From NCBI GenBank assembly GCA_030280995.1, contig JASXTE010000014.1:1170656-1234655 (forward strand): a stretch of DNA of 64,000 nt. The letters are read 5' to 3'. The stretch comes from Hemileia vastatrix (Eukaryota; Basidiomycota; Pucciniomycetes; Pucciniales; Zaghouaniaceae). This document shows positions 22,622-57,674 of this stretch, in pieces. Within the stretch, counting starts at the first letter, position 1. Every line of letters starts with the position of its first letter. Made by a program: the position numbers and the translations under genes. Below the pieces are notes generated by a model. The model was given only the letters and a program-made list of their open reading frames with translations, did not search any database and was not told where the DNA came from.

Positions 22622-25600
22622 TCAAGACAGCAATGGTTTTAAGTCTAAGTACTTTAAGAATTGATGATGCTTAGGTCTAGATAAGGATTTAGTAAGAATA
22701 TCAGCTAACATTTGATCAGTAGGAGTATATCTAATTTTAAATTCATTATTGTTTACTTGTTCTCGTAACCAACATACTTTAGTATTTATGTGTTGAGTTC
22801 TATGTTGATAAAGTGGATTGAGTGCCAGATTTATCCCACCTTGGTTGTCACCAATTAGAGAGGAAGAAATGAGAGATACGTTGAAATCATTGAATAGTTC
22901 TTTTGTCCAAATTAAGTCTTGTCCACATTCAGTCATTGCGTAGTATTCAGATTCAGAGGTTGAAAGTGCAACAGATTGTTGTTTTGATGATCTCCAGCTA
23001 ATGAGTCCAAGATGAAAAACAAGGGTTCCAGAGGTAGATTTGGAGTCTTCAGCTTTATTGTAGTCTGCATCAGCATAGCCAGTGAGATAACCTAATTTAC
23101 TTTCACCAACATTGCCCAAAGTTAAGCAGTAGTGTTTTGTGAGTTGGAGATATCTTAATACGTGAAAGAAGGCATTAATTTGATCATCAGATGGGTCATT
23201 GAGATATTGAGCTAATGAGCTGGCAGCGAATGATAAGTCAGGACGGGTGCATAATACTAGGTAATTGAGTAACCCTATAGCACGGCGATAGTTCACTAGA
23301 TGAGTAATTTTATTGGAAGAACTTTGAGTGAGATGAGTATTAGGAACTAGTGGAGTTGATACTGGACGACAATTCAAGTGATTGAACTCATTAAGAATTT
23401 TTTCGACATAAAGAGATTGGGATAAAGATACAGTTTTGTCTTTTCGGTTTCGATCGACCTTCATTCCTAGTACCCACTTCAGTTCCCCTTGATCATCCAT
23501 ATCGAAGACTTGAGAAATTTTGTCTTTGAAATCTTTAACGGAGGGACCGCCAATGATAAGATCGTCGACATGAATGTAGACGTAGCATGGACTACCAGTA
23601 TCATTATTAAAGAACAGGCAAGGATCGGCTTTACTTGCCTTGAAACCGATGTCAGCAAAGAAAGTACTCAATTTGTGATACCAGCACCTGGGACTTTGTT
23701 TGAGACCGTAGAGTGACTTTTTTAAATGTAGGCAACATTTGGTATTATTAGGATAGTAACCACTAGGGTATCGTAAGTAGAGATCTTCTTCAGGTTCTCC
23801 ATGTAAAAAGGCCGATTTGACATCCATTTGATGAAGCTCCCAATCTTTAAAGGCAGCAATGCCAAGGAGAAATCGAAGAGTTGTTAATCGGCCAGTGGGA
23901 GCGTAAGTTTCATTGTACTCTATTCCTTTGATTTGGGAGAAACCCTGCACACATAGCCTGGCTTTGTATTTAACTATGTTACCTTCGGAATCAGTTTTCT
24001 TTTTGAATGTCCAGGTGGTGCCTAGGAGATGATTGTGGTCCGGGATAGGTACCTCTTCCCAGACTTGATGTTTTGATATACTTGCTAGCTCAGATTGAAT
24101 AGCTCGTAACCACTCATCACTTTCGGGGGAATTGACCGCTACATAATAGTTTTTCGGAGTGTCCCATGGAGTGACTGCTAAACAAAGGGGATTACCTCGT
24201 CGTTTTGTTTGAAGAATATTAGCTGGATCGATGTCCGACGAAATTTCTTTTGAAGGTCTGAGATCTTTTTCAACATAAGCATAATTTTTTGGTGCGGGTG
24301 GAGAAATTTCTTCAAATCTTTCAGAATCAGGAATGTCAGTGTTTAGTTCAACATTGGACTGATCTTCAAGAGAGTGGATTTCGAGGGAGGATGTGTTGTC
24401 ATGATTGAAGGTGTTATTTGGAATTGATTCAAAGAAAGATGAATTAGAGAAATCAGTGTGTGTAAAGTCAAGGTCCGGAAAAACTAAGGTTTCGACAGGA
24501 CTCCCTTTATTAATTTTGGGAGCGAGATTGAAAGAGTTGAGAAATTTGACATTATGAGTAATAATAATGGCATCAGAATTTGGAGAGTAAATACGGTAAT
24601 TTATATGGCCCTCACAATATCCCAAAAATATTCCTTCGATTCCACTGCTGTCAAATTTTCCATTTCGATACTGCTTCTGTTGATAGTAGATAACGTCGGA
24701 GCCAAAGGGGTGGAGTTTTCTTGGTATATTATCTGAATCACCATGCCACAGTTCCCATGGTGTTTGATGATTTTTGTGAGCAGATGAGGGTAGAATGTTA
24801 AGAAGGAAAGTGGCTGTATTGATGGCCTCAGCCCACCAGTAAGAATCGAGTCCAGATTCAAGAAGTAGGCATCTGGCTTTTTCGACTAGGGATCGATTGC
24901 CTCTTTCCGCTATAGGATTTTGTTGTGGCGAATATGGAGCAGTAAGTAGGTGTTTGATACCTTTATTTTTAAGGTGATTTTTGAAATTATTGCTGGTAAA
25001 CTCCCCTTCATTGTCTGACACTATGGCTTTGACAGTTCGACCTAATTGATTTTCGACTAGCTTTTCATACTCCTTATATTTTTCAAAAGTTTCTGACTTG
25101 AGCTGCAAAAAGTATACATGCCGAAAGCGAGAGTGACCATCTGCAATTTGGAAAAAGTATGATTTTCCGCCTTTAGATTCTGGGGTAACCGGACCACATA
25201 AATCCATATGAAGAACATCAAGGGGTGATTTAGGCGTAGGAAAAGAACCGGAAAAGGGCAGAATGTGAGCTTTTGAAAGAGCGCAAGTTTTACAACTGAA
25301 TTGAGAGAAATTAAAACCTGGGAAAATCAATTCCATAGTTTGATTACTTGGGTGACCAAAATTATGATGAAGTAATTTGAGGTCCGGTTTGTTAGGTGAG
25401 GTTAGATTAATGTATAAAATCGGATATCTCAACAAGGGGAAACTTATAATTCTACCCTTATTTGAGAATTCAATAAGAGTCGTCCCATTCTCTTTAATTT
25501 TGAAAGTCCCATTGTCATTTTCTAGGCATCGACCATTTTTGAGAAGATCAACAATTGCAATAAGGGTTATACTAATTGAAGGTACATAGAGAGCACAATT

Positions 25601-26656
25601 GATATCAAAATTCTGACCGGATGATGAGGTGAAGGAAACTTTGCCTTGTCCAAGGGCAAGAATTTCATCCCCATTTGCCAGAGTTAATGAAATTTTGGTA
25701 TCTTCAAACTGAGTAAACAAGTTCCGATTATTGAAGATTGAATAAGAAGCGCCACTGTCCAGGATGGCGTGATTAAGTGGAAGATCGGAAAAAACAGATA
25801 ATACTTTGTATTGTGCGTCATTTCCCTTCATCTCTCGCTCTTTCCTTCGTTTTAAAAATTCTTCTCGCTTTTCTGGATGAAGTTGAAAGCATGAGGCTTC
25901 CGAGTGAGGTGCAAGTGGGTTGTGCTTCCCTTTTGAGCAGAAGGCTTTTGTTTTGGTGTCCACAGCCAAAACAGTCCCGGCAGAATTACTTGTGAGGTTA
26001 AGAGTTTTGCGTCGAGTAACTTCAGCTTCAACATCAGCGAATATTGACTCAATGGTAGGCCTCTGGTTGGTGATGTCGTACTTGCTCAGAATAATGGTGG
26101 CGGCCGTTTGATATGATTCAGGGAGCAAGTTGAGTACGTAATTTGCCATGATGTAAGATAGAATATTTTCTTTAAATAAGTCAGGTGCAACATCTCGTAA
26201 TAATTTGATAGTCCCCCTGAATTCGTCCATTGCTTCCAGAATATTGCTCTCCGTAAATTTAATCTTGAACAATTTACTGATTACGTAGGAGCAGTTTTGA
26301 CTGGATTTAGAGGCATAATGATTCTTGATTCGAGTCCACAACTCAGCAGGTTCGACGGCGTCATCATCTAAAATGAACTTGTGTTGATTGGCCCGGTCCA
26401 TAAACATTTTGATGATTGTGTTTGCTTGCCTTTGTTTGATTTTGAAAAGAGAGTGAAGTTCAGGATCAGATGGAATAGGGTTGTCCTCAACAAGGAATTG
26501 GTCCAGGTTACGAATTGTGAGGGCATATTTCATGTCAGTTTTCCAGGTACTGTAGTTTTTGTCATTCAACTTTTCGATGCCCTTAATTTCAGAGTAATTC
26601 GATCCATCTTGAAGATACGTGAAATCTGGAAGTGGTGAGGATGAGGGTTCAGCCAT
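22622..26656 (-). CDS. Copia gag-pol polyprotein (1344 aa, intact)
   Basis: Encodes the copia capsid and enzymes for reverse transcription and integration. Order along the protein: gag (about 1-290), with an N-terminal NYSTWKTDMKYAL block and a variant zinc knuckle C240-x4-H245-x5-H251-x4-C256. Aspartic protease has LDSGAS with D300. The integrase zinc domain has HHNFGH (430-435) and C455/C458. The integrase core has D485 (HMDLCG), D548 (SDNEGEF) and E584 (AERG), a D,D35E spacing. RT has QMDVKSAF (D945) and the catalytic YIHVDD (D1031/D1032). RNase H has GYADADYN and the STSESEYYA block. Domain order PR-IN-RT-RH is diagnostic of Ty1/copia. There is no frameshift or stop between gag and pol, as in one-frame copia elements. 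The ATG at 26656 is about 95 nt after the primer-binding site. Confidence 0.97.
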   Translation of the reverse strand: MAEPSSSPLPDFTYLQDGSNYSEIKGIEKLNDKNYSTWKTDMKYALTIRNLDQFLVEDNPIPSDPELHSLFKIKQRQANTIIKMFMDRANQHKFILDDDAVEPAELWTRIKNHYASKSSQNCSYVISKLFKIKFTESNILEAMDEFRGTIKLLRDVAPDLFKENILSYIMANYVLNLLPESYQTAATIILSKYDITNQRPTIESIFADVEAEVTRRKTLNLTSNSAGTVLAVDTKTKAFCSKGKHNPLAPHSEASCFQLHPEKREEFLKRRKEREMKGNDAQYKVLSVFSDLPLNHAILDSGASYSIFNNRNLFTQFEDTKISLTLANGDEILALGQGKVSFTSSSGQNFDINCALYVPSISITLIAIVDLLKNGRCLENDNGTFKIKENGTTLIEFSNKGRIISFPLLRYPILYINLTSPNKPDLKLLHHNFGHPSNQTMELIFPGFNFSQFSCKTCALSKAHILPFSGSFPTPKSPLDVLHMDLCGPVTPESKGGKSYFFQIADGHSRFRHVYFLQLKSETFEKYKEYEKLVENQLGRTVKAIVSDNEGEFTSNNFKNHLKNKGIKHLLTAPYSPQQNPIAERGNRSLVEKARCLLLESGLDSYWWAEAINTATFLLNILPSSAHKNHQTPWELWHGDSDNIPRKLHPFGSDVIYYQQKQYRNGKFDSSGIEGIFLGYCEGHINYRIYSPNSDAIIITHNVKFLNSFNLAPKINKGSPVETLVFPDLDFTHTDFSNSSFFESIPNNTFNHDNTSSLEIHSLEDQSNVELNTDIPDSERFEEISPPAPKNYAYVEKDLRPSKEISSDIDPANILQTKRRGNPLCLAVTPWDTPKNYYVAVNSPESDEWLRAIQSELASISKHQVWEEVPIPDHNHLLGTTWTFKKKTDSEGNIVKYKARLCVQGFSQIKGIEYNETYAPTGRLTTLRFLLGIAAFKDWELHQMDVKSAFLHGEPEEDLYLRYPSGYYPNNTKCCLHLKKSLYGLKQSPRCWYHKLSTFFADIGFKASKADPCLFFNNDTGSPCYVYIHVDDLIIGGPSVKDFKDKISQVFDMDDQGELKWVLGMKVDRNRKDKTVSLSQSLYVEKILNEFNHLNCRPVSTPLVPNTHLTQSSSNKITHLVNYRRAIGLLNYLVLCTRPDLSFAASSLAQYLNDPSDDQINAFFHVLRYLQLTKHYCLTLGNVGESKLGYLTGYADADYNKAEDSKSTSGTLVFHLGLISWRSSKQQSVALSTSESEYYAMTECGQDLIWTKELFNDFNVSLISSSLIGDNQGGINLALNPLYQHRTQHINTKVCWLREQVNNNEFKIRYTPTDQMLADILTKSLSRPKHHQFLKYLDLKPLLS

Positions 26657-26751
26657 GGCGGTGTAGGTAGAGGAGGAAGAATTTCCTGGAGAACCGGATG
26701 AGGTGGTTGTTGATTCAGGAGTCGCCAGATTTGATTAAATAAATAGCTGGG

Positions 26752-33706: not shown

Positions 33707-33776
33707 TAGAACTTGCTAGTTCTTTGGAATCTCTGTTTTCTTTGGTTGGCTCTTTTTGGTGTTTTGGACTGGAAGA

Positions 33777-36156
33777 ATGGCTTCTGGTTCTGCTATTCCT
33801 GTGGTGACTGTCAGTGGGGGGGATGGTCCTCCTGCTGTGATGGTTAGGGAGTGTGTTAGGATTAAAACTTGGGATGGTACCAAGTTTAATGGGGAAGATG
33901 TGAAGTGGTTTCTGGAGAAGCATGAAACTGCTGCTGGTGTGAATGGTGCTTCTTACCTGGACATGGTGAAGCAGATTATTTTCTTCATTGGTGATAGGGC
34001 GGTGGAGAAGGAGGTTGTGGCCATGCCTGGCTACAAGAAGAGGGATTGGAAATTGTTGTGTAGGGAGATGGTGGATAGATGGGGTGTCAGGTTCGCTATG
34101 GTGGATCTGAACAAGGTTGTCAGTGAATGGCAATCTTATGGTGGTGTTGGTAACTTGCATAGTTACAGGAAGTTTCTGCTACAGTTTGATCCTGTGGTGG
34201 AATACTTTGTGGAAGTGGAGGAGCTGGCACATGAAAATGCTGCCAAGGATGTTTTTTGGTCTGCCCTGGCTAGAGATGTCAGGATGGATGTGTTGAAGGA
34301 GCTGTCAAGGAAGAATTTATGAAGACTCTTTCTAATGGGGACCAGAAGTTGCCTGCCTTGGATAAGGTGAAGGAGGCTGTTGAGGCCCATTTGAATTATT
34401 GGCTGTGGACACCTATCAGGAGGGGTGTGCCAAGTATGTCAGCAAATTCAGTGAGGCTTTGGCGGAAGAGGAGGTTAGAGTGAAGAAGGAGGAGAAGAAT
34501 ATGGTGCAGGTTCCCAAACAGGAGAGGGACCCAGTGGTGGAGCAGTTGGCTGATCTCACAAAGCAGCTACATATTTTTGTTCAGGAGGCTAAGAAGATCA
34601 ATAAGGCACCTTCTCAGCCTAGAGATTTTGATAGGAGGGCTGGTAGGAGTGATCCTTGGGTCTGCTCTTATTGCAGCAGGAGGGGGAACAGGTCCAATTA
34701 TTGTTGGGCATTGAACAGGGATGTGTCTGAAGGAAAGGTGGAATTTGATGGCAGGGTTTTCAAGTTCCCTGACGGTTCATTTGTAAAGCCCAGTGAGGGG
34801 CAGGCTCCTGTTGATTTGGTCAGGAGAAGGGGTGGTTTCAATCAAAGGAAGCCAAGGTTTGAGGAGATTCCTGATCAGGGGAAGTCTTCTGGTAAGGAAG
34901 ATGATGATGTCAAGGGAAATGGGAAGGAGGTTAATAAGGTCTCTTTTTCTACTTCCTTTGGTGGCTTAGAGTTGTATTCTTGTGGTGGACAGTCAAGTGG
35001 TGAATGCTTGGCTGGTGTTTATGATGTGGAAGCAGAAAAGGTGGGAAGGCCTAAGAGCAGTTCTCAGGCACAACCAAAGCCTAAGGCTTCAAAGGTGGAT
35101 CTTAAGCTGAGTGCAGCTAGGAAGAAGTACAGCAAAGAGGAGCTGTACAAGATGCAGAAGGGTATGGCTGACATGGGCCCCCCAAGTTTTGGTGCATTGG
35201 ACATGAATGGTGAGCCAATGTCAATGGAGGTTGATTCTGACTCTGAGGAGGATGTCCCTTTGGCTTCATTTCCAAAGCCTGCTGGAGCTAGAGGTTCTGG
35301 TGAGGGATCTGGTTTGGTTCCTGTTAATGGTAAATCTGTTGGTCGTGCTGGTCCTCAAGAAGCTTCTAGGACCAAGGTAGTGAAGCAAAGAGCTCACTTT
35401 GAGAGGCCAGTAGTTTCTGGTCAAGTTAATGTTATGGACTCTGTCCTGGAAAGGATGAATCAGGGTCAGGTTTCCCTATCTTATGGGGAGTTGTATGCTA
35501 TCAGTCCAGGGTTGAATGATAGGCAGAAAAAGTTGCTGACCAAGAGAAGAGTTTCTTCTGGGGAGGTGGAATACATCTGTGATTCTGCTGAAAAGTTTGG
35601 TGAGGGGTTGGAAACTCATTTTTCTGCTCCTCTGGGATATGTCAATGTCACTCTGAATGGCAGGGAGGCAAGGGCATTGGTTAATTCAGGTTCTCAGATA
35701 AACCTGATTTCTTTGTTTGAGGCAACTCATTTGGGCCTCCCCATCAAAACTGGTATTAGTGGGAATTTGAGAGGGATTGGGGGGCATGTCACTGAATTGG
35801 TTGGAACTTCAGAGTTTGTGAAGTTAGATGTTGGCAGAGCCTCAGGAAAGGTTCATTTTTACATTGCTAAAGGTAATGTAAAAGCAGTTTTGGGTGGGCC
35901 ATTCTTGATGGATTTTCAGGCAAGAATTGGTTATCAATTTGATTTGGGAATCAGCTTGGAGTTGACTGGTGAAGACGAAAGGAGGCTTCACATGAGGTTA
36001 TTATCCCCCAGAGAGGATGGTTGGGAGACCAGGCCTGGTTTATCTTCATTGTGCCAGTGCATGGATTGTTGCAGGAGAAGGAAAGAAGTTGGTGCCGCCT
36101 CTGTTTTTCTGGAGTGTAGCTCAGGCTCTATTGAGAGTCTGTCTTTTTTAGAATAA
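33777..36156 (+). pseudogene. Gypsy-1 gag-protease, two frameshifts
   Basis: Capsid protein and aspartic protease of the retrotransposon. The ATG at 33777 (MASGSAIPV) is preferred over 33756 because the gag-like sequence begins there. Capsid region 33777-34310 includes KTWDGTKFNGEDVKWFLEKH. A first frameshift lies near 34315, and the true frame can be followed (FMKTLSNGDQ...) to a second shift near 34395. After that 34399-36156 is open. A zinc knuckle at about 34662-34703 reads CSYCSRRGNRSNYC, with Asn where CCHC has His. The protease block at about 35678-35710 reads ALVNSGSQINLIS, so the catalytic DTGS has become NSGS. Both changes suggest loss of function. Confidence 0.88.
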
Positions 36157-36397
36157 TGAGGGCTGATCACCCTAGTGCTACAACCTCTCCCCAAGATGAG
36201 GAAATCCCAGGTTGTAGTAGGTCAGCTCCCTTGGAGATATACCAAGTGGATTTTCAAACTTCTCTTTTTAATGTTTCTCTTCTCTGCAAGTATTCTTCAA
36301 GTTTTTTATCAAGTCTCTGTTCTCTCTCAAGATTCAAAATTATTTTTAATTCAAGCTCAAGGAAGAAGATTGGTTATATATCTTTATTGAAAGATAT

Positions 36398-36965
36398 GCG
36401 GAAAAGTTTTGGAGTGGTGAGATTGGGGTCTAAAAGTAAGTCCACCCTATTGTTCACCGCTAGGGTTTCTTCTACACCTTTCAAAAACATTACCTTGGCC
36501 ACACATGTGAGCATTGGGGAAACCCCTGGTTATTTTTGTAGGACAGAAGAAAACTCAAGAAGAGAAGATAAAAATTTAAAGATAATTCAAGAAAATCAAG
36601 AAAAAAAATCTGAAGATAATGAAGAAAAAAGATCATCAAGATCAATTTTTGGGCCTCCAGCATGAGGTTAAACTTCAGAAAATTATGAAGAAAGAAGATC
36701 ATCAAGATCAATTTTTGGGACTCCAGCATGAGGATTAACTGCACAATTTTAAAAGAGTTGATTCTGAAGATGAATCAAGATTTGAAGATTTGGAAGACGG
36801 AAGTGAAGATGAAGATTTGGTATTGCGGAAAAGTTTTGGAGTGGTGAGATTGGGGTCTAGAAGTAAGTCCTCCAAATTGTGCACCGCTAGGGTTTCTTCT
36901 ACACCTTTCAAAAACATTACCTTGGCCACACATGTGAGCAATGGGGAAACCCTTGGTTTTTGTTC
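36398..36965 (+). repeat. Duplicated coding segment between Gypsy-1 protease and RT
   Basis: A segment of about 143 bp encoding RKSFGVVRLGS...TARVSSTPFKNITLATHVS occurs twice, at 36398-36540 and 36825-36965 (offset 427 bp). Between the copies, the block GATCATCAAGATCAATTTTT also occurs twice (36631 and 36697, offset 66 bp). The intervening sequence is purine-rich. The duplication adds stops between protease and RT. Confidence 0.9.
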
Positions 36966-39900
36966 CAGGTCTGGTGGTGAAGATTTCCTGAAGATCCCTC
37001 AAGTTGAAGGTGGAGCAGCAAAGTATAAGAAGGTAGCGCAGAAGATTAGGCCTGTTAATGAGCCTATGCCTGTGGGTTTGAATCCGCCCTTGAAGAGACC
37101 TCCTTTTTCAAGAGATCTGTACTGCACTCCTTTGGTGAAGAATCCTCCAGAATTTTTAGAGGCGGCTAGGGTGACTGTGGAAAGGTTTAAATTTGTTAAT
37201 TTTGGTCCTGATGGGTGGTTATCTGAAGAAGAAAAGAAGTTGTTGTTGCACATTATTGTGCTAAGGGAAAAAGCTGTGGCTTTTGTTGAGGAGGAAAGGG
37301 GTGTGTTGAAGCACTCTTATTGTGAACCTTACTTGATTCCTGTGGTTTGTCATGAACCTTGGCAAATCAAACCTATTCCAATTACAGCTGCTATCAGAGA
37401 GGATTTTGTGGAAATTGTTAGGGAAAGAGTCAGGACTGGGTTATATGAACAATCCACATCCAGTTACTCAAGTCCGGTTTTCTGTGTAAAGAAGCAGAAT
37501 GGAAAGTTGAGGGTGGTTCATGATCTTAGAGCCTTGAATAGAGTCACTATCAAGGACGCTGGTATGCCACCAAGTGCAGAGGATTTTGTTGAAGCTTTTG
37601 CTGGAAGGGTGTGTTATGGTTTGGGTGACATTATGGGTGGCTATGATGAGAGGGAACTTCATACAGATTCAAGGCCTCTCACAACTTTTGAGACTCCTTT
37701 GGGAAGATTTCAACTCACTAGGTTGCCTCAAGGAGCAACTAATTCAGTGGCGGTATATCAAGCACAGATGGCTTGGATTTTGCAGGATGAGGTTCCTACT
37801 CATGCTGGTATTTTTATTGATGATGGTGGAATTAAAGGACCATCCACTGATTATGATAATGAGGTGTTAGCGGAGAACCCTGGCATAAGGAGGTTTGTTT
37901 GGGAATATGCAATAACTCTAGAGAGAGTGTTATTTAGGATTGAAGAGGCTGGTTTGACCATTTAAGGGTCAAAATTCTGTTGTTGTGTTCCTGCTTTGGA
38001 AATTCTGGGTCATGTGGTATGTAAAGAGGGAAGGATTATGGCGAAGAAGAAGATTAATAAAATCCAGTCATGGCTGAGGCCTAAAAATACTACTGAAGTC
38101 AGGGGATTTTTGGGTGTATATGTATATTTCGGGATTTTTATTAAGGATTTTTCTTTGTTGGCTTCACCTTTAAGGAAGTTGACCAGGAAAGATGCAGATT
38201 GGGAATGGACTGAAGAGTGTGAAGAAGCTTTTGAGAAGTTGAAAAGGGTTGTTGGTGAGGATATTGTTCTTCATAAATTGGATTATGGCGTTTGTGCTGG
38301 AAAAATTTATCTGGCAGTGGACTCAAGCTATATTGCTGCTGGTGCTGTTTTGCCTCAGGAGGATAAGACTGGGAGGGTCAGGCCAGTAAGATATGAGTCT
38401 GTGGTGTTTAATGAGGTGGAATCTAGGTATTCTCAACCTAAATTGGAATTGTGTGGTGTAGCAAAAATTTTAAAGAAGCTACAGACTGTTTTGTGGGGGC
38501 AGGATTTTGAGCTGCAGGTGGATGCAAAATCTTTAGTTCAGATGATCAATACACCTAGTCTTCCAAATGCTCCAATGACTAGGTGGGTGGCATTTATTCA
38601 ACATTTTTCTTTTGACCTGGTACACAAACCAGGCAAAACTTTTACAATGCCTGATGGATTATCAAGGAGGCCACCTACAGATGAAGATTCTGAGGCTGAA
38701 GAGTTTGATGAAGATGTTCCAGTGGTTAGGGCCAGCACTGAGGGTGCTGAAGATTTTTCTGACCTCCCCCAAGAGGCTAAGCTGGCTGGATCTGATCTTG
38801 ATTCTGGTGATCAGGATGTTTTTGTTGATGAAGATGGAGTTGTTTTTTGGGACAGCTCAAATTTGGAAAAGGGTGTTTTTGTCAGTGAACTGGATTCTCA
38901 CAAGGTTCAGTGGAAAGAGATGGACGTGCCAAAATTTAAGGATTGGTGTCCTGTTTGGGCTGGTCAATTGGCTCATGTTCACACTGGTGATTTTGATGAA
39001 AGAGTTGTACCCTTGGATGTTGTTTTGTTGGATTTTGAAGATGAGACCTGGGGTCAGTCTGGGTTTTATTTTATTTTGGTGGAATATCTGTTGACCTCGG
39101 AGAGGCCAGATAGTTGTGATGATGATACTTGGTTGGCAATTAAGAAGAAGAGTCCTGGATTTTATCTGTCAGGAAGAAGGTTGATGAGGAGAAGGCATCC
39201 TAATCCTCAAGTTGTGGTGACTCAGAAAAAGGGTCAAGAAGTTATGTTGAATTCTTTGCATGAAGACCTTGGTCATAGAGGCTTTGGGGAGACTTATAGA
39301 AGAGTAGCTGACAGATTTTGGTGGCCAGGTATGAATTTGGCTGTGCAGGGTTGGGTTCAATCTTGTGAAGAATGTCAAAGAAGAAGTCACTTGAAACCTA
39401 AAGAGGTCGGCCATGCTACTGGTGAAACAACTGTTTTTGGAAGGGTCAGTCTGGATGCTGTCCATATCAAAGAGGGCAGGTACAAATACTTAATTGTTTC
39501 CAGGGATGATTTGTCTGGTTGGGTTGAGGCAGTGCATCTGGTTAATTTGACTGCCAAGAATGTGGCAGAGTTTTTGAAGAAGGAGTGGATCTATAGGTAT
39601 GGGTTGATGAAGTTGGTGACTGTTGATGGTGGGCCAGAGTTTGGTGCCGAATTTAAAGAAGCTGTGGCTAGTGTTGGTTCTAAAGTTAGAGTGGCTACAC
39701 CTTATTATCCTGAAGCTGAAGGCATGGTTTAAAGAGGCCATCAAGTTATCAAGAATGCTTTGGTAAAGATGTGTGGGGATAGTGCTGAAAATTGGAGGCA
39801 TTATTTACCCTTGGTTTTATTTGCTGACAGGGTCACTGTGAAGAGGACAACTGTCTATTCTCCTTACAAGTTAATTTTTGGTCAGAAAGCTGTTCTACCA

Positions 39901-40320
39901 GTGAACTTGGAAGCTGTCTCTTATCTTGGAATTGATTGGGATGATGTGCACTCAATTGAAGAATTGCTCTGTGCCAGGATTCAACAGTTGGAATGTAGAG
40001 AGGAATGTCAAGAGAAGGAATACTCTAGAATGATGAAGATTAGGAATCAATCAGTCAGATACTGGGACAAGAAGTTGGCTCATAGACTCAGGAATCCCTT
40101 GAAACCTAGTTGTTTGGTCTTGGTGTATAATAGAAGTTTGGAGAGTCAGTGGGGAAAAATGTTTTCTGACAGATGGAATGGACCTTACAGAGTCAGATCT
40201 CAGGCGTCTGGAGGTTCTTATGTTTTGGAAGAGTTGGATGGTGCAGTTTTAAAAAAGAGAGTGTCTGCAGACCAGGTGAAGAGGTTCTATCCCAGAGGCA
40301 CTAGGCATGAAGAAGATTGA
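36790..40320 (+). pseudogene. Gypsy-1 RT-RNase H-integrase, two nonsense codons
   Basis: RT blocks: SSPVFCVKKQNGKLRVVHDL (about 37468-37530), GDIMGGYDE (about 37626), LPQGATNSVAVYQAQM (about 37725) and the catalytic FIDD (about 37811-37822). TAA at 37963-37965 replaces the Ser of LTISGSK, which is kept in the fragment at 60.15 kb. RNase H starts near 38300 (LAVDSS, SQPKLEL) and ends in FSFDLVHKPGKTFTMPDGLSRR. The integrase zinc domain (HEDLGHRG...C..C) is at 39258-39375; core Asp residues lie in LDAVHIKEG (about 39451) and TVDGGPEF (about 39620). TAA at 39730-39732 replaces the catalytic Glu codon of the GMIERGN block. The basic C-terminal domain ends at 40320. Confidence 0.92.
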
Positions 40321-48130: not shown

Positions 48131-48240
48131 TGAATAGTATAAAAATGGTTTGTTTAATTTCTATTTGTTTTTCTAAGATGATTCCATTCCTTTCTACATG
48201 CTATATAACATATTTCATATGTTTTATTATAATTTTATTA

Positions 48241-48335
48241 GGGGGTATCAATGTTCAGGGATCAGCAATTAAATTAATTGCGGATAAAAATCCTTATACC
48301 CCAATTATCTTCCGCAATTATTTTTGCTAATAATT
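48241..48335. repeat. Harbinger left TIR and subterminal inverted repeats
   Basis: The TIR (48241-48271) is followed by AATTGCGGATA ... TTCCGCAATTA, an inverted repeat of about 10 bp arms, and two CCCAATTAT/ATAATTGGG motifs. The CCGCAATTA motif also occurs in the right end (about 55579-55590). Subterminal repeats are the usual binding sites for the Myb-like partner of Harbinger transposases; applying that here is inference. Confidence 0.75.
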
Positions 48336-48605
48336 GGGTTATTAGACACTTTACGTGTCAATGTTCACCTCTTATCCGACATTTTTTTACTCAATTTTTC
48401 ATAACCAAATCTTGGACAACCTTCTGTCATAACCACATCTTGACCTACTTTCTGCCATAACCACATCTTGGACTACTCCCTGGATATGCCTTCTACCTTT
48501 CTGCGCACTTCCATTCTCATCCCATCCTGTTCATTCTATCCGCTCAGAGCCCCTCACCATCTCATCTGCTTGTTTCTGCTCCTTTTCATCTTCATTTATA
48601 ATAAC

Positions 48606-49955
48606 ATGCCTTGTCATCCTAGATCTTCTCAAAGGCAGCCATCACCCAGTTGTTCTTCAATTCCCACTACTTCCTCTTTCCCCCGCTTGGCCAAGAAATC
48701 AAAGACCGTTCAATTAAAAAAAGATGACCATCTCATTCTTATCAACTGGCTGAAAACCAAATCTAGCTATGATTCTTATTTTGGTACTGAGTATGCCACT
48801 AAAGTAGGATGGCCCCCCACATCAAAAGTTAATGGCTATCTTCTAATGGCAAATGAATTACGCAATAAGACCAATGGAAGGATTGATCTTTTGCCTATAC
48901 AGATGTCTGAATGCTTCAAGCATTACCGAGAAAAATACAAGAAGGCAAAGGCTCTTTCATCTTCCACTGGTTTTGGGATTACCAAAAACAATATAACTAA
49001 GGGCATAAAATCCATAGACGATAAACTTGATTCTTTATGTCCTTACTTTAAAGAGAAGGATTAAATTTTTGGAGAGCGAGCCAATTTTAATCCTGTAAAC
49101 ATGTTGGATGGTGAAGATCCTATATCTGAACATGATGTTGAAGCAAATCTTTTCCCATCTTCTTCCTCCACTCAAGCCTCCCCTCATTTGAATGAGACAT
49201 ATCTAGATAGCTTTTATGTAGATCCTATAGGTGATTTAACCCAACCAAATATAACTCAGGTCTGTTTCTTTTTTCTTTTATCTTATCATTTCTATTTTTT
49301 ATTTACTTATCTTTTTCTTATTTCTTAAAAGGCTGATGAACAAACCCAGGATCCTCAATCAACTGAGTCTGAAGCTAGTGACAATGATGAGGAGGAAAAT
49401 GCTACGTTGAACAAAAAGCAAAGGGCTTCAAGTAGTCTAAATTTCCTCTCCCAAAGAAGACGAAAAAGTGATACTTCATCACAAACACCTTTTTCTTCGA
49501 TGGAACAGTTTTTAGAGAAAGGTGATGCTGGTAAGTGATACCATACCTCTTATTACTTTACTCTACTTTTCTTCCACTTTATATTAATTTTTATTATCAC
49601 TCTAGAACAAGTGGAAATTTCTAAAGAGACTCTAAGCTTTGAAAAGAAGAAATACAAGCTCTCTTTAAGGAGGGATGACAGAGTACAAGATTTGGAAGAG
49701 AGGAAGTACAAGCTCTCCTTACGGAAGGATGATCAGGTCCAAGATTTGGAGGAGAAGAAGTTTGAGTTAACTCTTAGTATTGAAAAATCTAAAAAAGAGG
49801 AAAAAACACTCGAGCATCAAAACTTAATGGAACAGATGAAGTATAAGCATGATCTTCAAGAAAGTTCTAAAAAGAATGATTTCTTGATCAAATGCATTAA
49901 AGCAAACAAATCTGTTGAAGAAATAGAACATTTAATGAAATTTTTTGTTGACTAG
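48606..49955 (+). pseudogene. Harbinger Myb/SANT-like DNA-binding protein gene (one nonsense codon)
   Basis: Partner protein of a Harbinger transposase, expected to bind the element ends. Exons 48606-49259, 49332-49530 and 49606-49955; introns of 72 bp (GTCTGT...AAAAG) and 75 bp (GTAAGT...CTCTAG), both phase-compatible. I prefer the ATG at 48606 (MPCHPRSSQ) to 48468 because the added 46 residues are hydrophobic and lack similarity to such proteins. The Myb/trihelix-like domain lies at about residues 38-125 (KKDDHLILINWLK...SECFKHYREKYKKAK). A SIDDKLDSLCPYF...FGERANFNP block follows, then an acidic/Ser region and a C-terminal coiled coil with two near-identical YKLSLRxDDxVQDLEE repeats. TAA at 49062-49064 falls between KEKD and IFGERANF and would truncate it. 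Confidence 0.75.
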
Positions 49956-50099
49956 TTTCTTTTATTTATTTCACACTTCATGTGTTCATATTTATTTGTA
50001 CATAAATTTTACAATTATTTTCTGTATTTCTTGAAATTTCGTATTTTAATTTTAAATATTCTTTTTTTAAATAAAATTTTTAAGTCTCATTTGAAAATT

Positions 50100-50530
50100 T
50101 GACAATCTCCCACCCCTGGATTTTTTTGAAGTAAGGGGTGGGTATCACAAAAATTCTTTCATGTCATGAATCTTGAAAGTCTTATATGAAAATTTGGCTT
50201 TACTACCCCCTGCATTTTACCGGTATCCCCAAAATTCTTACAAGTCAAGAATTTCACAAGTCTTATAAGAAATTTTGGCAATACCCCCCCTGGATTTTAT
50301 TGAAGTAAGGGACGGGTATCACCAAAAAAATTTCACCAAAATATTTACAAGTCAAAAAAATTCTATATCTGTTTTAAAAAATTGGCAATACTCTCCCCTG
50401 GATTTTATTGAAGTAAGGGACGGGTATCACCAAAAAAATTTCACCAAAATATTTACAAGTCAAAAAATTTCTATATCTGTTTTAAAAAATTGGCAATACC
50501 CCCCCTGCATTTTATTGAAGTAAGGGGTGG
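50100..50530. repeat. Tandem repeat, ~108-bp unit, between convergent Harbinger genes
   Basis: About 3.5 units. Clear unit starts TTGGCAATAC are at 50275, 50382 and 50490, each followed by CCCCTGGATTTTATTGAAGT and GGGTATCACC. An older unit lies upstream. It sits in the 3' intergenic space between the Myb-like gene and the oxygenase gene and has no gene of its own; the 82-codon frame here is just the repeat. Confidence 0.9.
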
Positions 50531-50830
50531 AAGTCATCTAAATCTAATATAATTACATAAATTATTAAATAAATATCTAATATATATCAATTTCCCTAGT
50601 TTAAAGTAATGAAAATTCCTCAAGCCAAAATGCAGACCAAGTCAAGAAACAAAAGTTTGGGACTTTCCACAGGTATAGGCAAGAGGAACCCCATGAAAAA
50701 AATAAATGTTATCATGATTACCTGTTATACAACACAAGGTCGTTGGCCCATTACTTTAGTTGAGGAAATTGATATATAAAAAATATTTATTAAAAAGTTA
50801 TGAAAAAATATTAAATTTTTGATGACAACT

Positions 50831-52078
50831 CTAATCCCCATACTTTTTGGATCTAGATAAAGTTTTTTTAAATTGATTAACTTTACCTTCTTTCTTTACC
50901 TTGTTGATTCTTTGAATCAACTTTTGACTTATTTGAAAAGAACAACCAAAATGAGTGAAATCTTGACAGGACTCCAAACCAGGAGGAGCTTTGGTCGTTT
51001 GATGATTATCCTTAGAAGAATTCCAAATAGTTTCAATGATACCATTTCCCAAACCAAAATCAATGATGCACCGGTGGTCTAGAAAATATAAACCATGTCC
51101 TTTGATTTTAGCTGGAGATGGTATTGGTTGCCCAGTAATCGGTTTGATATATGAGAATATACCAAAAGTAAGAAAATTGGCATCATTGGTGTTGGTGTGA
51201 ATTTTATTGTGAAATCCAGAATGAGTGATAATAAAATTAGAAAATAAAAGATATTCGTGGCTGATATCTTCCCATTCAGAGTCACACCAATTCGGTATTC
51301 CAACTTTGGTTGCAAGTTCATGATTTTTTTCAAATGCTTTATTACAGAGCTTTTTGAGTCAAAGAGCAAGAAAAGAATTAAAGGAAGGTAGAGTGTCCCA
51401 TAAGCGAAAATCTTCATCTGTTTGTGCTTTAGTGATATTCTTGACCAATGAATATATGCCTATATAATTGAAATAAGTGAAATGATATTAAGAATGAAAC
51501 AAAAATTATTAGACATACCAAGAGAATATCCTTTGACAAAACCAGGTCTCCAACCAAAACCAATCATGATACCACCCAACAAATTCTTATTCCTTATAGG
51601 TAACCAAACCAAAGCCATTTGATAAAGAGTTGTGATAAGATTGGATAGTTGATTTAAAGCTTCATCTTTTACACCATTGAATGAATGAACTTCCAAAATG
51701 AATTGAGGCTTAAAAGTATTGCTGATAACTGCAACAACTCGATCATCACCAAATTCTGTTAGATATTTGATATCTTCTGGTAATTTTTTCAGATATTGAT
51801 TTTTTTTATCTACTTTAGTTTTATAAAAAAGATATTTGGGATATGCCTAAAATAACTTTCGCAGAGAATCTTTTTTTTAAATATCTTTTCTTCTGATGAG
51901 ACTGATTATCATTAATATTTTTTGATGATTTAGAAGATGATTGTATGGAAGTTGATTTCAAAGAAGATGATAGAGTTGATTTCAAAGAAGATGATAGAGA
52001 TGATAAAGATGAATATGATAAAGAAGATAAAGATGAAGATGAGAGAGAAGTAAGGGGTGAATCTGAAGAAGAAGACAT
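50831..52078 (-). pseudogene. Tet-like 2OG-Fe(II) oxygenase gene inside the Harbinger element
   Basis: Exon 1 runs 52078-51519 (MSSSSDSPLTS start; Ser-rich and basic N-terminus; one frameshift near 51838). An intron lies at 51460-51518 (59 bp, GTATGT...TATAG, phase 1). Exon 2 runs 51459-50831 with a single TGA at 51359-51361. Exon 2 shows the layout of the fungal Tet/JBP-like family: GFHNKIHTNTNDANFLTFGIF (metal-site region), then GLYFLDHRCIIDFG, GIIETIWNSS, DNHQTT (second His) and a THFGCSFQIS end block. The family oxidises 5-methylcytosine in its best-known members; substrate here is unknown. The usual HxD appears as HTN, so iron binding may be impaired or my alignment may be off by residues. 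Fungal Tet-like genes are known to ride on KDZ transposons; finding one between Harbinger TIRs is unusual. Confidence 0.7.
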
Positions 52079-52129
52079 TTTTTTGATCTGAAGAAAAATT
52101 AATTGTCTATAAAATTTCAACTCAATTTT

Positions 52130-52690
52130 TTTAAAAAAAAATTCCTACCTAATAATAAAAAAAGCTGTTTTTTTATTTGAAAAAAAAAATTGAAAAAAAA
52201 ACACCCAAAAAATCAGTAAAAATTTTTCCAAAAAAAAAATTTATAAAAAAGAAAAACCTGAGGTTTTATTTTAAAAAAAACAATAAAAGCAAAATCCTAT
52301 AAAAAAAATTAATAATTAAATTCATTCAAAAAAGAAAATTTCAGTAAAAATTAAATTAAAAGTGAACCTGAAGATTGGTTATTGAAAACCTTCTCACAAG
52401 ATCCTGAAAAAAAAAAAAAAAATACAGTAAAATCAAAATCAAAATCAAAAAAATTATTAAAATAAAAAAAAACCGAAAAATTATTTACTTGAAAAATTAA
52501 TTTTTAATTTAAAAACCTTTTTTTATTTGGAAATAAGAGGGACAGTCCTTAACAGAAAGAAATTTTTTTTTATTTCTATAATACTGCCAGCCAAAAAAAT
52601 TAAAAAATTAATCAAATTTACAAAAAAAAATTTGTTAGTATATTTATTTGAAAGTAGGTAACCCCTCTTTATCTTCCATAAATTTCCCCT
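52130..52690. other. A/T-run-rich spacer upstream of the oxygenase gene
   Basis: Dense runs of A and T (6-15 nt). Presumably the 5' flank and promoter region of the oxygenase gene. No open frame of note and no motif that I can single out. Confidence 0.5.
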
Positions 52691-52709
52691 ATTCCACTCC
52701 TTTATTTAT

Positions 52710-53560
52710 GTGAAATCCCCTTACAAATCCCTCCCTCCTTGCCTCAATAGTCCCCTCAAATCCTCTCCTTTCCTGCATCAAAAACCCCCTGAATACCCCT
52801 GCTTAATTCTCTCAAAACCCCCCAAAATTCCCCCCCAAATCCCCTCCCTTAGTTACCTTAATCCCCCCCTTTACCCTTCTTTATATATCCCAACCACCCC
52901 CCTTCACCTTTCTTTAGCCTCCTCAACCCCCCCCCCCCCCATTCCCCTCTCTTTAGCTGCCTCAAACCCCCCTTTCCCCCCCCTTCCACTCCCCTTACCC
53001 CTACCCACACCCTTACCTCCTCCTCTACCCCCCCCCCCCCCCTCGTTCTTAATGAACGATTGTTAGCGATTGTTCATTAAGAACGAGGGGAGGGGGGTAG
53101 AGGAGGAGGTAAGGGAGTGTGTAGGGGGGTAAAGTGAGTAGAAGGGGGGGAAGGGGGGGTGTTTGAGGAGCCTAAAGAGAGGGAAAGGGGGGGGTTTGAG
53201 GTGGGTAAAGAGAGGTGAAGGGGGGGATTTGAGGCAGCAAAAGAGAGGTGAAGGGGGAGGTTTGAGGCGGCAAAACAGAGGTGAAGGGGGGGGGTTGAGG
53301 GACATAAAAAGAGGGGAAGGGGCGAGTATTGAAGCACCTAAAAAGAGGGGAAGGGGGGGTGATGAGGGACCTAAAGAGGGGGGGAAGGGGGGGTGATGAG
53401 GGACCTAAAGAGGGGGGAAAGGGGGATTTGAGGCAGCTAAAAAGGGGGTAAAAAGGGGGTATTGAGACAGGTAAATAGAGGGAAAAAGGGGGGCCTTGAG
53501 GATGATAAAGAGAGGTGAAGGAGAGAAAAAAAAAACAAAAAAAAAGAGAAAAAAGAGAAA
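52710..53560. repeat. Pyrimidine/purine mirror arms forming a long hairpin
   Basis: 52710-53043 is almost pure pyrimidine-rich on the plus strand (long C-runs) and 53086-53530 almost pure purine. At the centre a near-perfect inverted repeat (arms about 50-60 bp, TTACCTCCTCCTCTACCCC...CGTTCTTAATGAAC) flanks a loop of about 14 nt (53061-53075). The purine arm is a minisatellite of about 36-40 bp (GGTTTGAGGCGGCAAAAGAG). Translated frames here are Pro/Leu or Gly/Arg repeats and not genes. Confidence 0.9.
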
Positions 53561-53580
53561 AAAACAAAACAAAAATTAGT

Positions 53581-53937
53581 TTACCCTAGAACAAAAATAA
53601 ATGAAGCACTTACAAAAAAAACAAAAAAATCAAAAAAATCATGATTAGCAAATAAAAAACCAAGAAAAAAGAAAAAAAATGACCTACCTGGTGAGTTGAG
53701 TTGAGAAAATAAATGCAACCAAAAAAACTGAGTGATGTTTGAGGAGAGGATGAAAAGGATATGAGTGATGAAAGAAAAAAAAATCACTGACAAAATATGC
53801 GATTTCATGTTGAGGAGGTGAAAGAAAACCAATGAGCCATCCAAAAAAAAGATATTCACCGTAAATTCAAAAAAAAAAATGAATATGCAACAAACCAAAA
53901 TACAAAACCAAGTGAATAACGTACACAAAGAGGACAT
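53581..53937 (-). other. T-rich 3' flank of the transposase gene, not a gene
   Basis: The 118-codon minus frame is almost entirely Phe/Leu/Ile from T-runs. I treat it as the downstream flank of the transposase gene. Confidence 0.6.
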
Positions 53938-53968
53938 TTGGAAAGTATGAAAACATAAAAATTAAAAA

Positions 53969-55282
53969 TTAAAAGGGTGGTGAAGAGAAATGTTGGAGAG
54001 TAATTGGCATTATAATGGGGTGTATGCCGGTTGATTGAATGATTTGTGAATCAAGGGAGGGGAGTGCCAGTGGTGGTTCAGGATCCTCTTCTTCATAAAG
54101 ATCATTCCACTCATCCTTTAAATCAGCTAGAATATTGTGGAGTATTACGCAAGTAAAGATCCAATGATTTGCAGTTTTGATCTCCAATTTTTTTTGAAAT
54201 TGGATTCTGAGCTCCCGAAGACTAGAAAATCGTCCCTTTAAAATACCTATAGCATGTTTGATTCGTACTCTTGATTGTGCAAGGTGATAATTAAAGGCAG
54301 TTTTGGGGTCATTTTCTGAAGTTGCACCACGGAAAGCAGGTATAATGTACTTTCCACTTGCATATGCTGAGTCTGCAAGGAGGTACTGAGATTCGTCAAA
54401 GTATGAGTCAGGGGATTGATAAATCCTCATTCTTTGGAAGACGGAAGAGTCATGACATGATCCAGGGAAGCCACTGTAAAAAGCAATACATTTTTTATTG
54501 ACGTCGCATACAAGTTGAACGGCAATAGAGTATCTAGAAAGAAGATAAAAAGTTAGATTGTGAAAGATGAGAGCTTGGAGAAGATTTTGAAGAAACCTTT
54601 TTTTGCAATCAAAATAATGGTTGCCATCATGAGCAGGCTTTTGACTCAAAGGGATCGTTGTGCCATCAACAAAACCTATACAACCAGGGAAACCTTCAGC
54701 TTTCATTACTTGAGAGGATTCAAGTTGCTGTTCTGGAGTTGGCCAAGCAAGAGTTTGAGACTTGAGGGAAAGGATAGCAATCATAGAGCGCTTGGTGTAT
54801 AATATCACGGTACCATATCCTATGTTAAAGAGATTATCTAAACGTCTTATGGCAGCACCATTTCCATTTAAGCCAAAGTGACATAGAGAAACAGAAAGTT
54901 GGATGGCAGGATTATGCTGTTTGTTATGAGAATTGTTATGGAAGATAGGATGTTCAGAAATGAGTTGATAAAGTTTGAAAAAAGAATCGGGAGAAGTTCT
55001 AAAAAGTTGGGTGAAATTTAAATGAGGGATGTTGAGAATGGAGGCCAGATCATATCGGGGATCATGATAAAGATTTGGCCCCCTGGTGATGATGTAACGC
55101 TTTTTGGAAAGAAAACACATATAAGCTAAAGCATCTTCCAAATCAGAGTCAGATTTATAGTAAAGAACTAAAAGAAAAGTGATAGCATTCATTGTTGAGT
55201 GAAGCAGCTTCCTAGTAGAGAGGTGTTTCATTGTTTCCAGTGGAAGGGTTATGTGATGAGGGAAGTGGGAATTAACCGCCAA
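53969..55282 (-). CDS. PIF/Harbinger DDE transposase
   Basis: Endonuclease that would excise and insert the element. 437 codons as one frame, but codons 229-249 look like an in-frame 63-bp intron (54534-54596, GTTTCT...CTAAC...CTAG). Splicing it joins CKK to RYSIAVQLVCD, restoring the family block, and gives about 416 residues. An N-terminal helical region (about 80-170) with LCHFGLNGNGAAIRRLDNLF resembles the HTH part of fungal Harbinger proteins. Catalytic blocks: GFVDGTTIPL (D206), GFPGSCHDSSVF (D278) and LADSAY (D304). The RVRIKHAIGILKGRF block has Lys342 where the family has the catalytic Glu (codon AAA at 54257-54259). That substitution probably inactivates this copy. No other break. 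Confidence 0.9.
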   Translation of the reverse strand: MAVNSHFPHHITLPLETMKHLSTRKLLHSTMNAITFLLVLYYKSDSDLEDALAYMCFLSKKRYIITRGPNLYHDPRYDLASILNIPHLNFTQLFRTSPDSFFKLYQLISEHPIFHNNSHNKQHNPAIQLSVSLCHFGLNGNGAAIRRLDNLFNIGYGTVILYTKRSMIAILSLKSQTLAWPTPEQQLESSQVMKAEGFPGCIGFVDGTTIPLSQKPAHDGNHYFDCKKRFLQNLLQALIFHNLTFYLLSRYSIAVQLVCDVNKKCIAFYSGFPGSCHDSSVFQRMRIYQSPDSYFDESQYLLADSAYASGKYIIPAFRGATSENDPKTAFNYHLAQSRVRIKHAIGILKGRFSSLRELRIQFQKKLEIKTANHWIFTCVILHNILADLKDEWNDLYEEEDPEPPLALPSLDSQIIQSTGIHPIIMPITLQHFSSPPF

Positions 55283-55496
55283 ATGTGCAGTTAGGGTGTG
55301 TAGATAGAAAAAAAACTTAAGTGTTTGCCACCAAAATTAAGTAGCATAGAGTGAGGAAAGACTTAAGGATGGCATCAGCAATTATGAGTCATGTGACTTT
55401 CTTGCAAATCCATCATGGATGAGATGAGTTTGGGATCAGGAATTAGGAATGGAAATTGGGGTATAAGAGGCGGGATAATGCATTATCGTGGATTCC

Positions 55497-55526
55497 TTAT
55501 CCACTAGCCCCGGGGCTAGTGGATAA
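55497..55526. repeat. 30-bp perfect palindrome near Harbinger right end
   Basis: TTATCCACTAGCCCC followed by its exact reverse complement. A second palindrome, GATAATGCATTATC, lies at 55474-55487. Both are about 85-135 bp inside the right TIR end and have no counterpart at the left end. They may be binding sites for the transposition proteins or a hairpin in RNA. Confidence 0.9.
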
Positions 55527-55579
55527 GAATCTTCTGCAATTAATAATGTCTGATCTTGGGAAAAAAAATTACTGATCCC

Positions 55580-55610
55580 TAATTGCGGATCCCTGAACAT
55601 TGATACCCCC
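55580..55610. repeat. Harbinger right TIR
   Basis: TAATTGCGGATCC...ACATTGATACCCCC, the inverted copy of the left TIR with one mismatch. Confidence 0.9.
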
Positions 55611-57674
55611 TATTTTGTATAACACTATTACTTACCTCTCCATTCCTACCTTCTGTCTTACATAAAAAAATTATAATCAATATTATTCCCCTGTTAAAAA
55701 TTTCTTTTCTTTTCTGTCAACACAATTATTTCCATGATTTTAAACCCTTTATTCTGCTATCAAATGCTCTCTGACCCTTTAAAAGTGTCCCTACCCCTTT
55801 CCACTTCTTCCCATCCCTATTTATCACTTCCCCAGACCTTCATGCCTGTTATAGCTCATAGAAACCAAGAGCATTTTTTGAGAAGGAAATGAAAAGGGAT
55901 TGATGACAGGTTAAGTGTAGAAAAAGACAAAGAGTGATGATAAAAATTGGAGATATGGGTTGAAAAAAATGGTTAGAGAGGGAAGTAAAATGGGTTTAAA
56001 GAAGCTGTCAATTTAATAGAAGAGAGAAAAAGAGATTAGAATTGGTTTGATTTCTGATTGAAGGGTATTGGAAGTAGTGGGGCGAAATTTTAATGGGAAA
56101 AGAAACAGGTTAAGATTTGTGCAATAGGGAGTGAAAGAAAAAGGATGAGAGAAAAGTGAAAGGTGAAAGGAAGGTAGAAAAACATTTTTTGAGCAAATAT
56201 GATCACATATAAGGTGCTAGTAAGAGTTAGAAAATTAGAAAAAGTGTTTGAGAAAAATCAAAATAAGAGGGTGGATGCTATTTTATCACCAAAAATCAGA
56301 ATTCACCTTCATCTTATATTTCTTACTACAGAGGCAGCTTTATCTCAATCATATGAGTACTGAGTTATGGCCTTAAATTCTTCACCCTGCTATAATAAAG
56401 TGGAGAACTCCATTTTAAATTTAACGAAAATTAAATTCTAGTTTTAGGCTTTTTATATATCTTCAGTAATTCAAGATACATAATTTTTTACTACTTATAT
56501 AAATAATTTAATTGAAAAAATCAAAAGTAATTAAATATTGAAATTAATCAATACATAGTAATACATTCCTTCTTTCAAATAATTTCATTTTATGAAAATA
56601 ATAATTATTCATATCTTAGAAAAATCAGTCAAATTTCATTATCTATAAAATATTTTGAGAAAAAAAAACCTACAATAAAACTCAAAAATATCAAAGATAT
56701 TAGTAACAATTAAAAAATGCATTTACATTAAATAAAATCTATGATTAAAAATTATTCCACAGATTTAAACCTAAGTTTTGGGATGAAGTTATTGAATTTT
56801 AATCTCCTATAGTGTGCTGATTGTCAGTTACAGATGTTGTTTTAAATCTCCATAGAATTCCACTTGAAATTTCATACAAGACCTTTTTGCATGTTTTAAA
56901 TTTGAGATTCAACTTTTAATTTGTATATAATCACCTACAAAAAATTAATTCAATTTATTTTCAGTAAATTCAAATACTTTTTTAAATATAATATTTTAAT
57001 GTTCATCCTTCTATTGTCTGAGTAATTTTTTTTTCAAAAAAAATATAGTTTATAGAATCATATCTTTATAAATTTTTTAATATCTTATCACAAGGTTTTT
57101 CTCAGTCTTTATGGATCTCTGATTGAACTCCCAATGCAAGTCTCATCCTGAGGATTCTTAAAATTAACTTAAACATTAAACATATTTAACATCTTTTAAT
57201 TTTTTAAAAAAGCTTTATCAATGAATAAAATGGTATATGCTGTAAATTATAAGCCTTCAATTTAAGTAAATAGGTATCTGGGAATAATAAGACCTGTTAA
57301 ACTCATTTGTAATCAGTTTTTTTAAATGAGAGCTATAAGAGCCCCATTCATGATAAAGTATTTTGTTTACCCCAATATATATTGATAAAAAGCTTATCAG
57401 GCTTCAAGCTCTGTCAGTAGTTTATATTTAATGCGTTGGTATTTCTATATTCCTTCAACTACATTGAAAAAACCTAGCTCATGAAAAAATTTAATTTTTT
57501 TGTTAATGTTTCTTAATGAGTTAAAAATTTTCTTTAATTTTTATGATGCCTTTTAAAAAAATATTTACTTTACTTCATTTAATTTATTTGATCTGATTTT
57601 GGTTTATTTTATTCTATCATACTATATAATACTGTATTATATTATATTATATTTCATTTCATTTCACTTACTAT
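55611..57674. other. AT-rich interval, no gene seen
   Basis: Purine-rich stretch 55860-56230, otherwise AT-rich. No supported gene. Confidence 0.5.

What the first reader, a model, noticed from the sequence alone, without database searches (positions are those of the whole stretch)
48241..55610. Harbinger transposon carrying a Tet/JBP-like dioxygenase between its TIRs
Near-perfect TIRs bracket the standard Harbinger pair (Myb/SANT-like gene and DDE transposase) plus a third, intron-containing gene. That gene's C-terminal exon has the conserved blocks of fungal Tet-like 2OG-Fe(II) oxygenases (THSGFHNKIHTN, CIIDFG, GIIETIW, DNHQTT, THFGCSFQI). Established: fungal Tet/JBP families expanded together with KDZ transposons. 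Inference: a Harbinger lineage independently captured one, perhaps to oxidise methylcytosine and escape silencing. The oxygenase lies in the middle, beside the transposase and on the same strand, as cargo would.
Basis: partly seen in the sequence, partly recalled or inferred. Interest (0 to 1): 0.87.

Follow-up and report, generated by a model that had tools for sequence, protein, structure and literature searches.

The report
Harbinger transposon carrying a TET gene
This is a broken copy of a jumping gene, probably from a rust fungus, that carries a gene for a TET-like enzyme predicted to undo DNA methylation; the arrangement is already published for rusts, but in this genome a nearly identical form that lacks the enzyme gene has likely multiplied recently.

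Summary
Observation confirmed. 48241-55610 is a TIR element flanked by TA, with a DDE_Tnp_4 transposase, a third gene and a Tet-like 2OG-Fe(II) oxygenase (PF20515, E 2.2e-36 with X at its stop). The kind is published: Kojima 2025 (PMC12730594) describes TET+ Harbinger elements with TA duplications ('PHISTA') in rusts. This copy looks dead: TGA and HxN in the oxygenase, Lys at the transposase's catalytic Glu, a stop in the third gene. Of 20 sibling copies fetched from the 747.6-Mb genome, 16 hold the oxygenase exon; the other four stop matching before that region. The exon is constrained about like the transposase (dN/dS 0.42, 0.48). Copies show 11-fold excess transitions at CpG. New here: full, truncated and oxygenase-free forms coexist. 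One oxygenase-free element was read in full; its marker stretch matches at least 40 places, 21 identically over 301 bases, so it likely spread recently. That weakens a strict need for the enzyme in cis. Whether young oxygenase carriers are equally common was asked but did not complete. The third protein, said in print to lack Myb/SANT, has weak, recurrent Myb_DNA-bind_4 matches (8 of 10).

The parts
48239..48240 (.). left flanking TA (target site duplication)
   Evidence: left flank ends in TA in 19 of 20 siblings
48241..48271 (+). left terminal inverted repeat
48606..49955 (+). third gene (exons about 48606-49259, 49332-49530, 49606-49955); in-frame TAA at 49062-49064; possibly Myb/SANT-like
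   Evidence: exon borders by reading; stop; sibling proteins match Myb_DNA-bind_4 below cut-off
50532..50824 (.). conserved non-coding segment with AT-rich inverted arms, directly 3' of the oxygenase
50831..51459 (-). oxygenase C-terminal exon; in-frame TGA at 51359-51361, HTN at the HxD site
   Evidence: PF20515 E 2.3e-23
51460..51518 (-). oxygenase intron (GTATGT...AG)
51519..51846 (-). oxygenase middle exon
   Evidence: with the C-terminal exon PF20515 E 2.2e-36 over 8-211
51821..52078 (-). Ser-rich N-terminal reading frame of the oxygenase, in another frame than the middle exon here
   Evidence: frames also differ in most other copies checked; one frame in L031
52860..53530 (.). C/G-rich inverted-repeat array
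53972..55225 (-). transposase (DDE_Tnp_4), Lys at the catalytic Glu column; a 63-nt insertion against relatives is read as an intron
55580..55610 (-). right terminal inverted repeat
55611..55612 (.). right flanking TA
   Evidence: TA also follows the right TIR in the 9 of 20 siblings where that TIR was found

Best explanation
48241-55610 is a decayed copy of a TA-flanked Harbinger-type (PHISTA-like) transposon that carries a Tet-like oxygenase gene between its inverted repeats, and intact relatives of that enzyme would likely oxidise methylated cytosines and so loosen methylation-based silencing. Shown here: the parts, the TA flanks, a multi-copy family, constraint on the oxygenase exon, an excess of CpG mutations, and siblings that lack part or all of the gene. 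Inferred: the activity on 5-methylcytosine, the benefit to the element, and that forms without the gene manage because enzyme made by other elements works in trans. The window copy itself is predicted to be inert.
For: TIRs and TA flanks; Pfam matches for transposase and oxygenase; oxygenase exon in the same order and strand in 16 of 20 fetched siblings; HxD kept in 11 of 17 rows, 2 HTN, 1 HIH, 1 YID, 2 with gaps there; dN/dS 0.42 (0.25-0.69) for the exon, like the transposase 0.48 (0.34-0.70); CpG transitions 197 of 1,573 against 235 of 21,653 at other C/G sites; CpG observed/expected 0.22 left of the element; 150 of 150 scored PF20515 matches in the genome over the cut-off, 10,849 candidates; six such loci chosen by me each lie near at least one other PHISTA-type gene.
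Against: An oxygenase-free form is abundant and nearly identical between copies, so the gene is not needed in cis. Form B lacks the start of the domain and its exon's dN/dS is 0.63 (0.36-1.13), constraint not shown. Carriers were CpG-mutated in spite of the enzyme. No activity was tested. The oxygenase structure model failed.
Confidence: 0.65

Rival explanations
1. The oxygenase is a passenger: it brings the element no benefit, and forms without it spread because they are shorter.
For: The oxygenase-free form is 4,988 bp against about 7.4 kb and is nearly identical between copies; truncated form B is common (8 of 16 copies with the exon).
Against: dN/dS of the exon below 1 (0.42, 0.25-0.69; form A against form B 0.38, 0.23-0.68); the gene is kept in divergent families of the same genome and in other rusts (PMC12730594).
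Confidence: 0.2
2. The window's family was at first without the gene and gained the oxygenase block from another PHISTA family; the oxygenase-free form is then the ancestor and not a loss.
For: Against L030/L031 the oxygenase block (element 2099-3784) is 77.6-77.8% identical, the transposase 67.5-68.0%, the third gene 65-66% over about 230 nt; against L032 oxygenase and transposase are alike.
Against: Synonymous sites are saturated in oxygenase and transposase, so the contrast may be constraint; the trees resolve few branches among the forms.
Confidence: 0.2
3. Chance nesting: the oxygenase belongs to another transposon that landed inside this one.
For: Nesting is seen nearby in the genome (L034 cluster).
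Against: Same order, strand and relative place in 16 of 20 siblings and in L030, L031 and L033.
Confidence: 0.02

Closest known systems
TET+ PHISTA, Harbinger with TA duplications (Kojima 2025, PMC12730594)
   Same: Harbinger-type DDE transposase, TA duplication, Tet/JBP oxygenase and a third gene in one TIR element; rust hosts.
   Different: Full, truncated and oxygenase-free forms found side by side in one family; the third protein shows weak Myb/SANT-like matches, which the paper reports as absent.
KDZ and other TET+ fungal transposons (Dileera, Kyakuja, Zisupton, hAT7, IS3EU; PMC12730594)
   Same: DNA transposons that carry a Tet/JBP oxygenase.
   Different: Other transposase families and longer duplications (6 to 8 bp in that paper).
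Nuwa / canonical Harbinger (as described in PMC12730594)
   Same: DDE transposase plus a second, possibly Myb/SANT-like, protein.
   Different: 3-bp duplications, and two proteins for Nuwa, without oxygenase.

Membership tests
PHISTA (TET+ Harbinger) | Harbinger-type DDE transposase | tested here: met
   DDE_Tnp_4 E 1e-24; nearest proteins from rusts. Placement in the published tree was not tested.
PHISTA (TET+ Harbinger) | TA target site duplication | tested here: met
   TA at both ends of the window element; left TA in 19 of 20 siblings, right TA in the 9 of 20 where the right TIR was found. No empty site was searched.
PHISTA (TET+ Harbinger) | Tet/JBP oxygenase inside the TIRs | tested here: met
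   16 of 20 siblings
PHISTA (TET+ Harbinger) | third protein without a Myb/SANT domain (as the paper states) | tested here: inconclusive
   window protein: no match; Myb_DNA-bind_4 below cut-off in 8 of 10 sibling or related proteins, E 0.0014-0.027
Tet/JBP 2OG-Fe(II) oxygenase | Tet-like oxygenase domain | tested here: met
   PF20515 E 2.2e-36, 126.3 bits, cut-off 27
Tet/JBP 2OG-Fe(II) oxygenase | HxD iron-binding motif | tested here: not met
   HTN in the window copy and in L010; HxD in 11 of 17 rows and in L029-L033
Tet/JBP 2OG-Fe(II) oxygenase | oxidation of 5-methylcytosine | not testable with these tools
   no assay
Canonical Harbinger | 3-bp target site duplication | tested here: not met
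   flanks agree over TA only in the window copy

The most novel reading that the evidence does not exclude
Within one genome a TET-bearing Harbinger family has spun off freeloaders: compact copies without the oxygenase that are now the ones spreading, living off demethylation provided in trans by the many TET-bearing relatives. Transposon-made TET would then be a shared good of the transposon community, open to cheating, and not a private shield of each element.
Probability: 0.35. Interest if true: 0.75.

Novelty: new member of a known kind. Interest (0 to 1): 0.5.

Why it matters
Whether transposon-borne TET enzymes really help transposons is open; the published view is that each enzyme serves its own family (PMC12730594). 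A genome in which full, truncated and oxygenase-free versions of one family sit side by side in many copies would let that be tested by comparing methylation, expression and copy number of the three forms.

Tried and rejected
Structure prediction of the third protein (one sequence, pLDDT 38.9) and of the oxygenase exon (three sequences, pLDDT 36.8) failed, so no fold search was run. The window's third protein found no homologue (22 candidates) and nothing credible in the PDB, alone or as a profile; NCBIfam gave nothing relevant. A genome-wide Myb_DNA-bind_4 search gave two matches, on contigs C470 and C177, whose surroundings I did not look at. Viral contigs held no relative of the transposase. 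A 56-codon frame in the conserved non-coding segment was rejected because several other copies have it broken. Exchange of the oxygenase between families looked strong and was downgraded because synonymous sites are saturated; one row of that call (F1_WIN against L031, 27 codons) was misframed and is not used. The L034 cluster is nested, so its genes were not used as a linked set. I first read the N-terminal frame break as a frameshift of this copy; in most other copies the frames also differ, so I state only that they differ. Rfam matches in the element are microRNA-like hits of the C/G hairpin at 52999-53126, all below their cut-offs. The search for young oxygenase carriers (exon of L033) did not complete, and the empty site was not searched.
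Full report
What is there. The element runs from 48241 to 55610. Its TIRs, counted with the TA flank, are 33 nt and 97% complementary; the TIR core is found nowhere else in the window, 0 expected. On the plus strand lies a third gene; on the minus strand an oxygenase and a transposase, with a C/G-rich inverted array between them. Pfam names the transposase DDE_Tnp_4 (E 1e-24) and the oxygenase 2OG-FeII_Oxy_6, 'Tet-like 2OG-Fe(II) oxygenase superfamily' (E 2.3e-23 for the last exon; E 2.2e-36 for middle plus last exon with X at the stop).

Host. GC is 35%. The nearest transposases in the protein search (80 matches among 2,519 candidates) are from Puccinia coronata, P. striiformis and Austropuccinia psidii at 45-50% identity, so the host is likely a rust fungus, but this is inference.

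Known kind. Kojima 2025 (PMC12730594) reports 15 TET+ Harbinger families with TA duplications in six Pucciniales species, names the lineage PHISTA, and suggests escape from silencing and from C-to-T mutation. I read its abstract, methods, the PHISTA section, the phylogeny section, the first of two parts of the discussion, the figure legends and found passages, not the supplement. Text searches showed me no second paper on PHISTA transposons; that is no proof of absence.

This copy looks dead. Oxygenase: in-frame TGA, and HTN in place of HxD. Transposase: open, but Lys at the catalytic Glu column. Among 13 rows of the family, window included, 11 have Glu there, L010 a stop and the window Lys. 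In the 18-row alignment with proteins of other genomes, 6 rust proteins also have Lys, 1 has Arg and 10 have Glu, so Lys alone may not be fatal evidence. Third gene: a stop in the first exon; 11 of 21 rows have at least one stop in the stretch compared.

Siblings. The first 460 bases match 39 other places at 94-98% identity over nearly the full length; only 40 of 3,792 candidates were scored. I fetched 20 of the 39. Sixteen hold the oxygenase exon; L009, L021, L024 and L028 lose similarity to the element before it. Of the 16, seven also hold the middle exon (with the window eight: form A; 7.3-7.4 kb where both ends were found), eight have that part replaced by other sequence of about 0.9 kb (form B; 5.9-6.1 kb where both ends were found, but L018 is 7.6 kb), and L019 could not be assigned. 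Form B keeps the iron-site exon but lacks the start of the domain. Five of 17 rows have no stop in the oxygenase exon, one of them with many codons missing.

Constraint and decay. With CpG-prone codons masked, dN/dS among copies is 0.42 (0.25-0.69) for the oxygenase exon, 0.48 (0.34-0.70) for the transposase, 0.64 (0.33-1.49) for the middle exon and 0.88 (0.49-1.68) for the third gene; so constraint is shown for the first two only, and pairs of copies are not independent. Within form B the exon gives 0.63 (0.36-1.13). Copies differ from the majority of the others by a transition at 197 of 1,573 CpG positions, against 235 of 21,653 other C/G positions. CpG is depleted in the window (observed/expected 0.22 left of the element, 0.28 in it). 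A survey found DNMT1 and DNMT5 in all 12 Pucciniomycotina genomes it studied (PMC12210899, passages only). Methylated CpG, the expected substrate, therefore probably exists in the host; and carriers were mutated in spite of the enzyme.

Expansion. A PF20515 search of the genome scored 150 of 10,849 candidates and all 150 passed the cut-off; 88 of 150 have no stop inside the match by my reading of the table. Six loci, chosen by me among stop-free rows and so not a random sample, each lie near at least one other PHISTA-type gene: L033 belongs to the window's family (exon 94% identical); L029, L030 and L031 are one other family (exon 82-84%, transposase 57-58% where found, third gene 41-55%); L032 has oxygenase and transposase (50-52% over most of it) but no third gene found; L029 has no transposase in the stretches read (also L037); L034 is a nested cluster.

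The oxygenase-free form. The transposase search scored 100 of 20,456 candidates; the 99 besides the window are 94-95% identical to it, 90 of 99 without a stop by my reading. One was fetched: L039 holds a complete element of 4,988 bp with TIRs (left core 3 of 22 bases different), TA flanks, third gene and transposase (Glu present) and no oxygenase; window element positions 1789-4857 are not matched, and about 660 nt of other sequence stands there. A 301-base stretch across that border matches 40 scored places of 1,450 candidates: L039 itself and 39 others, 21 of the 40 identical over all 301 bases and the rest listed at 100% after rounding. At 21 of the 40 a transposase lies in the matching orientation, 20 at the compact spacing and one farther away. 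So the form is numerous and, by its near-identity, likely young. Only one such copy was read in full. The search that would show whether young carriers are as numerous was sent many times and not answered, so I cannot rank the two forms by age.

How it likely works. Transposase and third protein would move the element by its TIRs; the oxygenase, where intact, would likely oxidise 5mC and relieve silencing. The oxygenase-free form fits an enzyme that acts in trans, or one that is dispensable. I prefer the first because the exon is constrained; this is inference. Whether that form lost the gene or descends from elements that never had it is not resolved by the trees.

Exchange between families. 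Between the window's family and L030/L031 the oxygenase block (element 2099-3784) is 77.6-77.8% identical while the transposase is 67.5-68.0%. This would fit exchange of the block, but synonymous sites are saturated, so it stays a lead.

Third protein. In 5 of 6 siblings and 3 of 4 other loci the best Pfam match is Myb_DNA-bind_4, over much the same stretch, E 0.0014-0.027, below the cut-off; it is the only match in 7 of these 8. L016 and L034 did not match it. The paper's statement that these proteins lack Myb/SANT may reflect divergence; this is not settled.

Noticed in passing
window 50532-50824; L029, L030, L031, L036: A non-coding segment of about 290 nt directly 3' of the oxygenase, AT-rich inverted arms around a core, is 85-87% identical to L029-L031 and 80% to L036, more than the oxygenase coding sequence beside it, and is not an open frame in most of the rows shown.
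   Followed up: partly
window 22625-26734 and 33720-40317: Two retrotransposon-like stretches (by my reading of the frames, no domain search) differ strongly in CpG: observed/expected 0.66 in the long open frame of 1,370 codons and 0.10 in the other, as expected of a young and an old copy in a methylated genome.
   Followed up: no
P0013, P0042 (Orobanche), P0030 (Phytophthora megakarya), P0055, P0069 (Peronosclerospora sorghi): Relatives of the transposase are listed from a parasitic plant and from oomycetes, some on contigs of many megabases; transfer or contamination was not examined.
   Followed up: no
window 52860-53530: C/G-rich array of 33-34-nt units with a strong inverted repeat between oxygenase and transposase; similar C/G-rich inverted arrays lie in L030, L031, L033 and L034.
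   Followed up: no
C121:12436700-12455500 (L035, L034, L036): A pile of nested PHISTA pieces with three oxygenase pieces and two third genes within 19 kb.
   Followed up: partly
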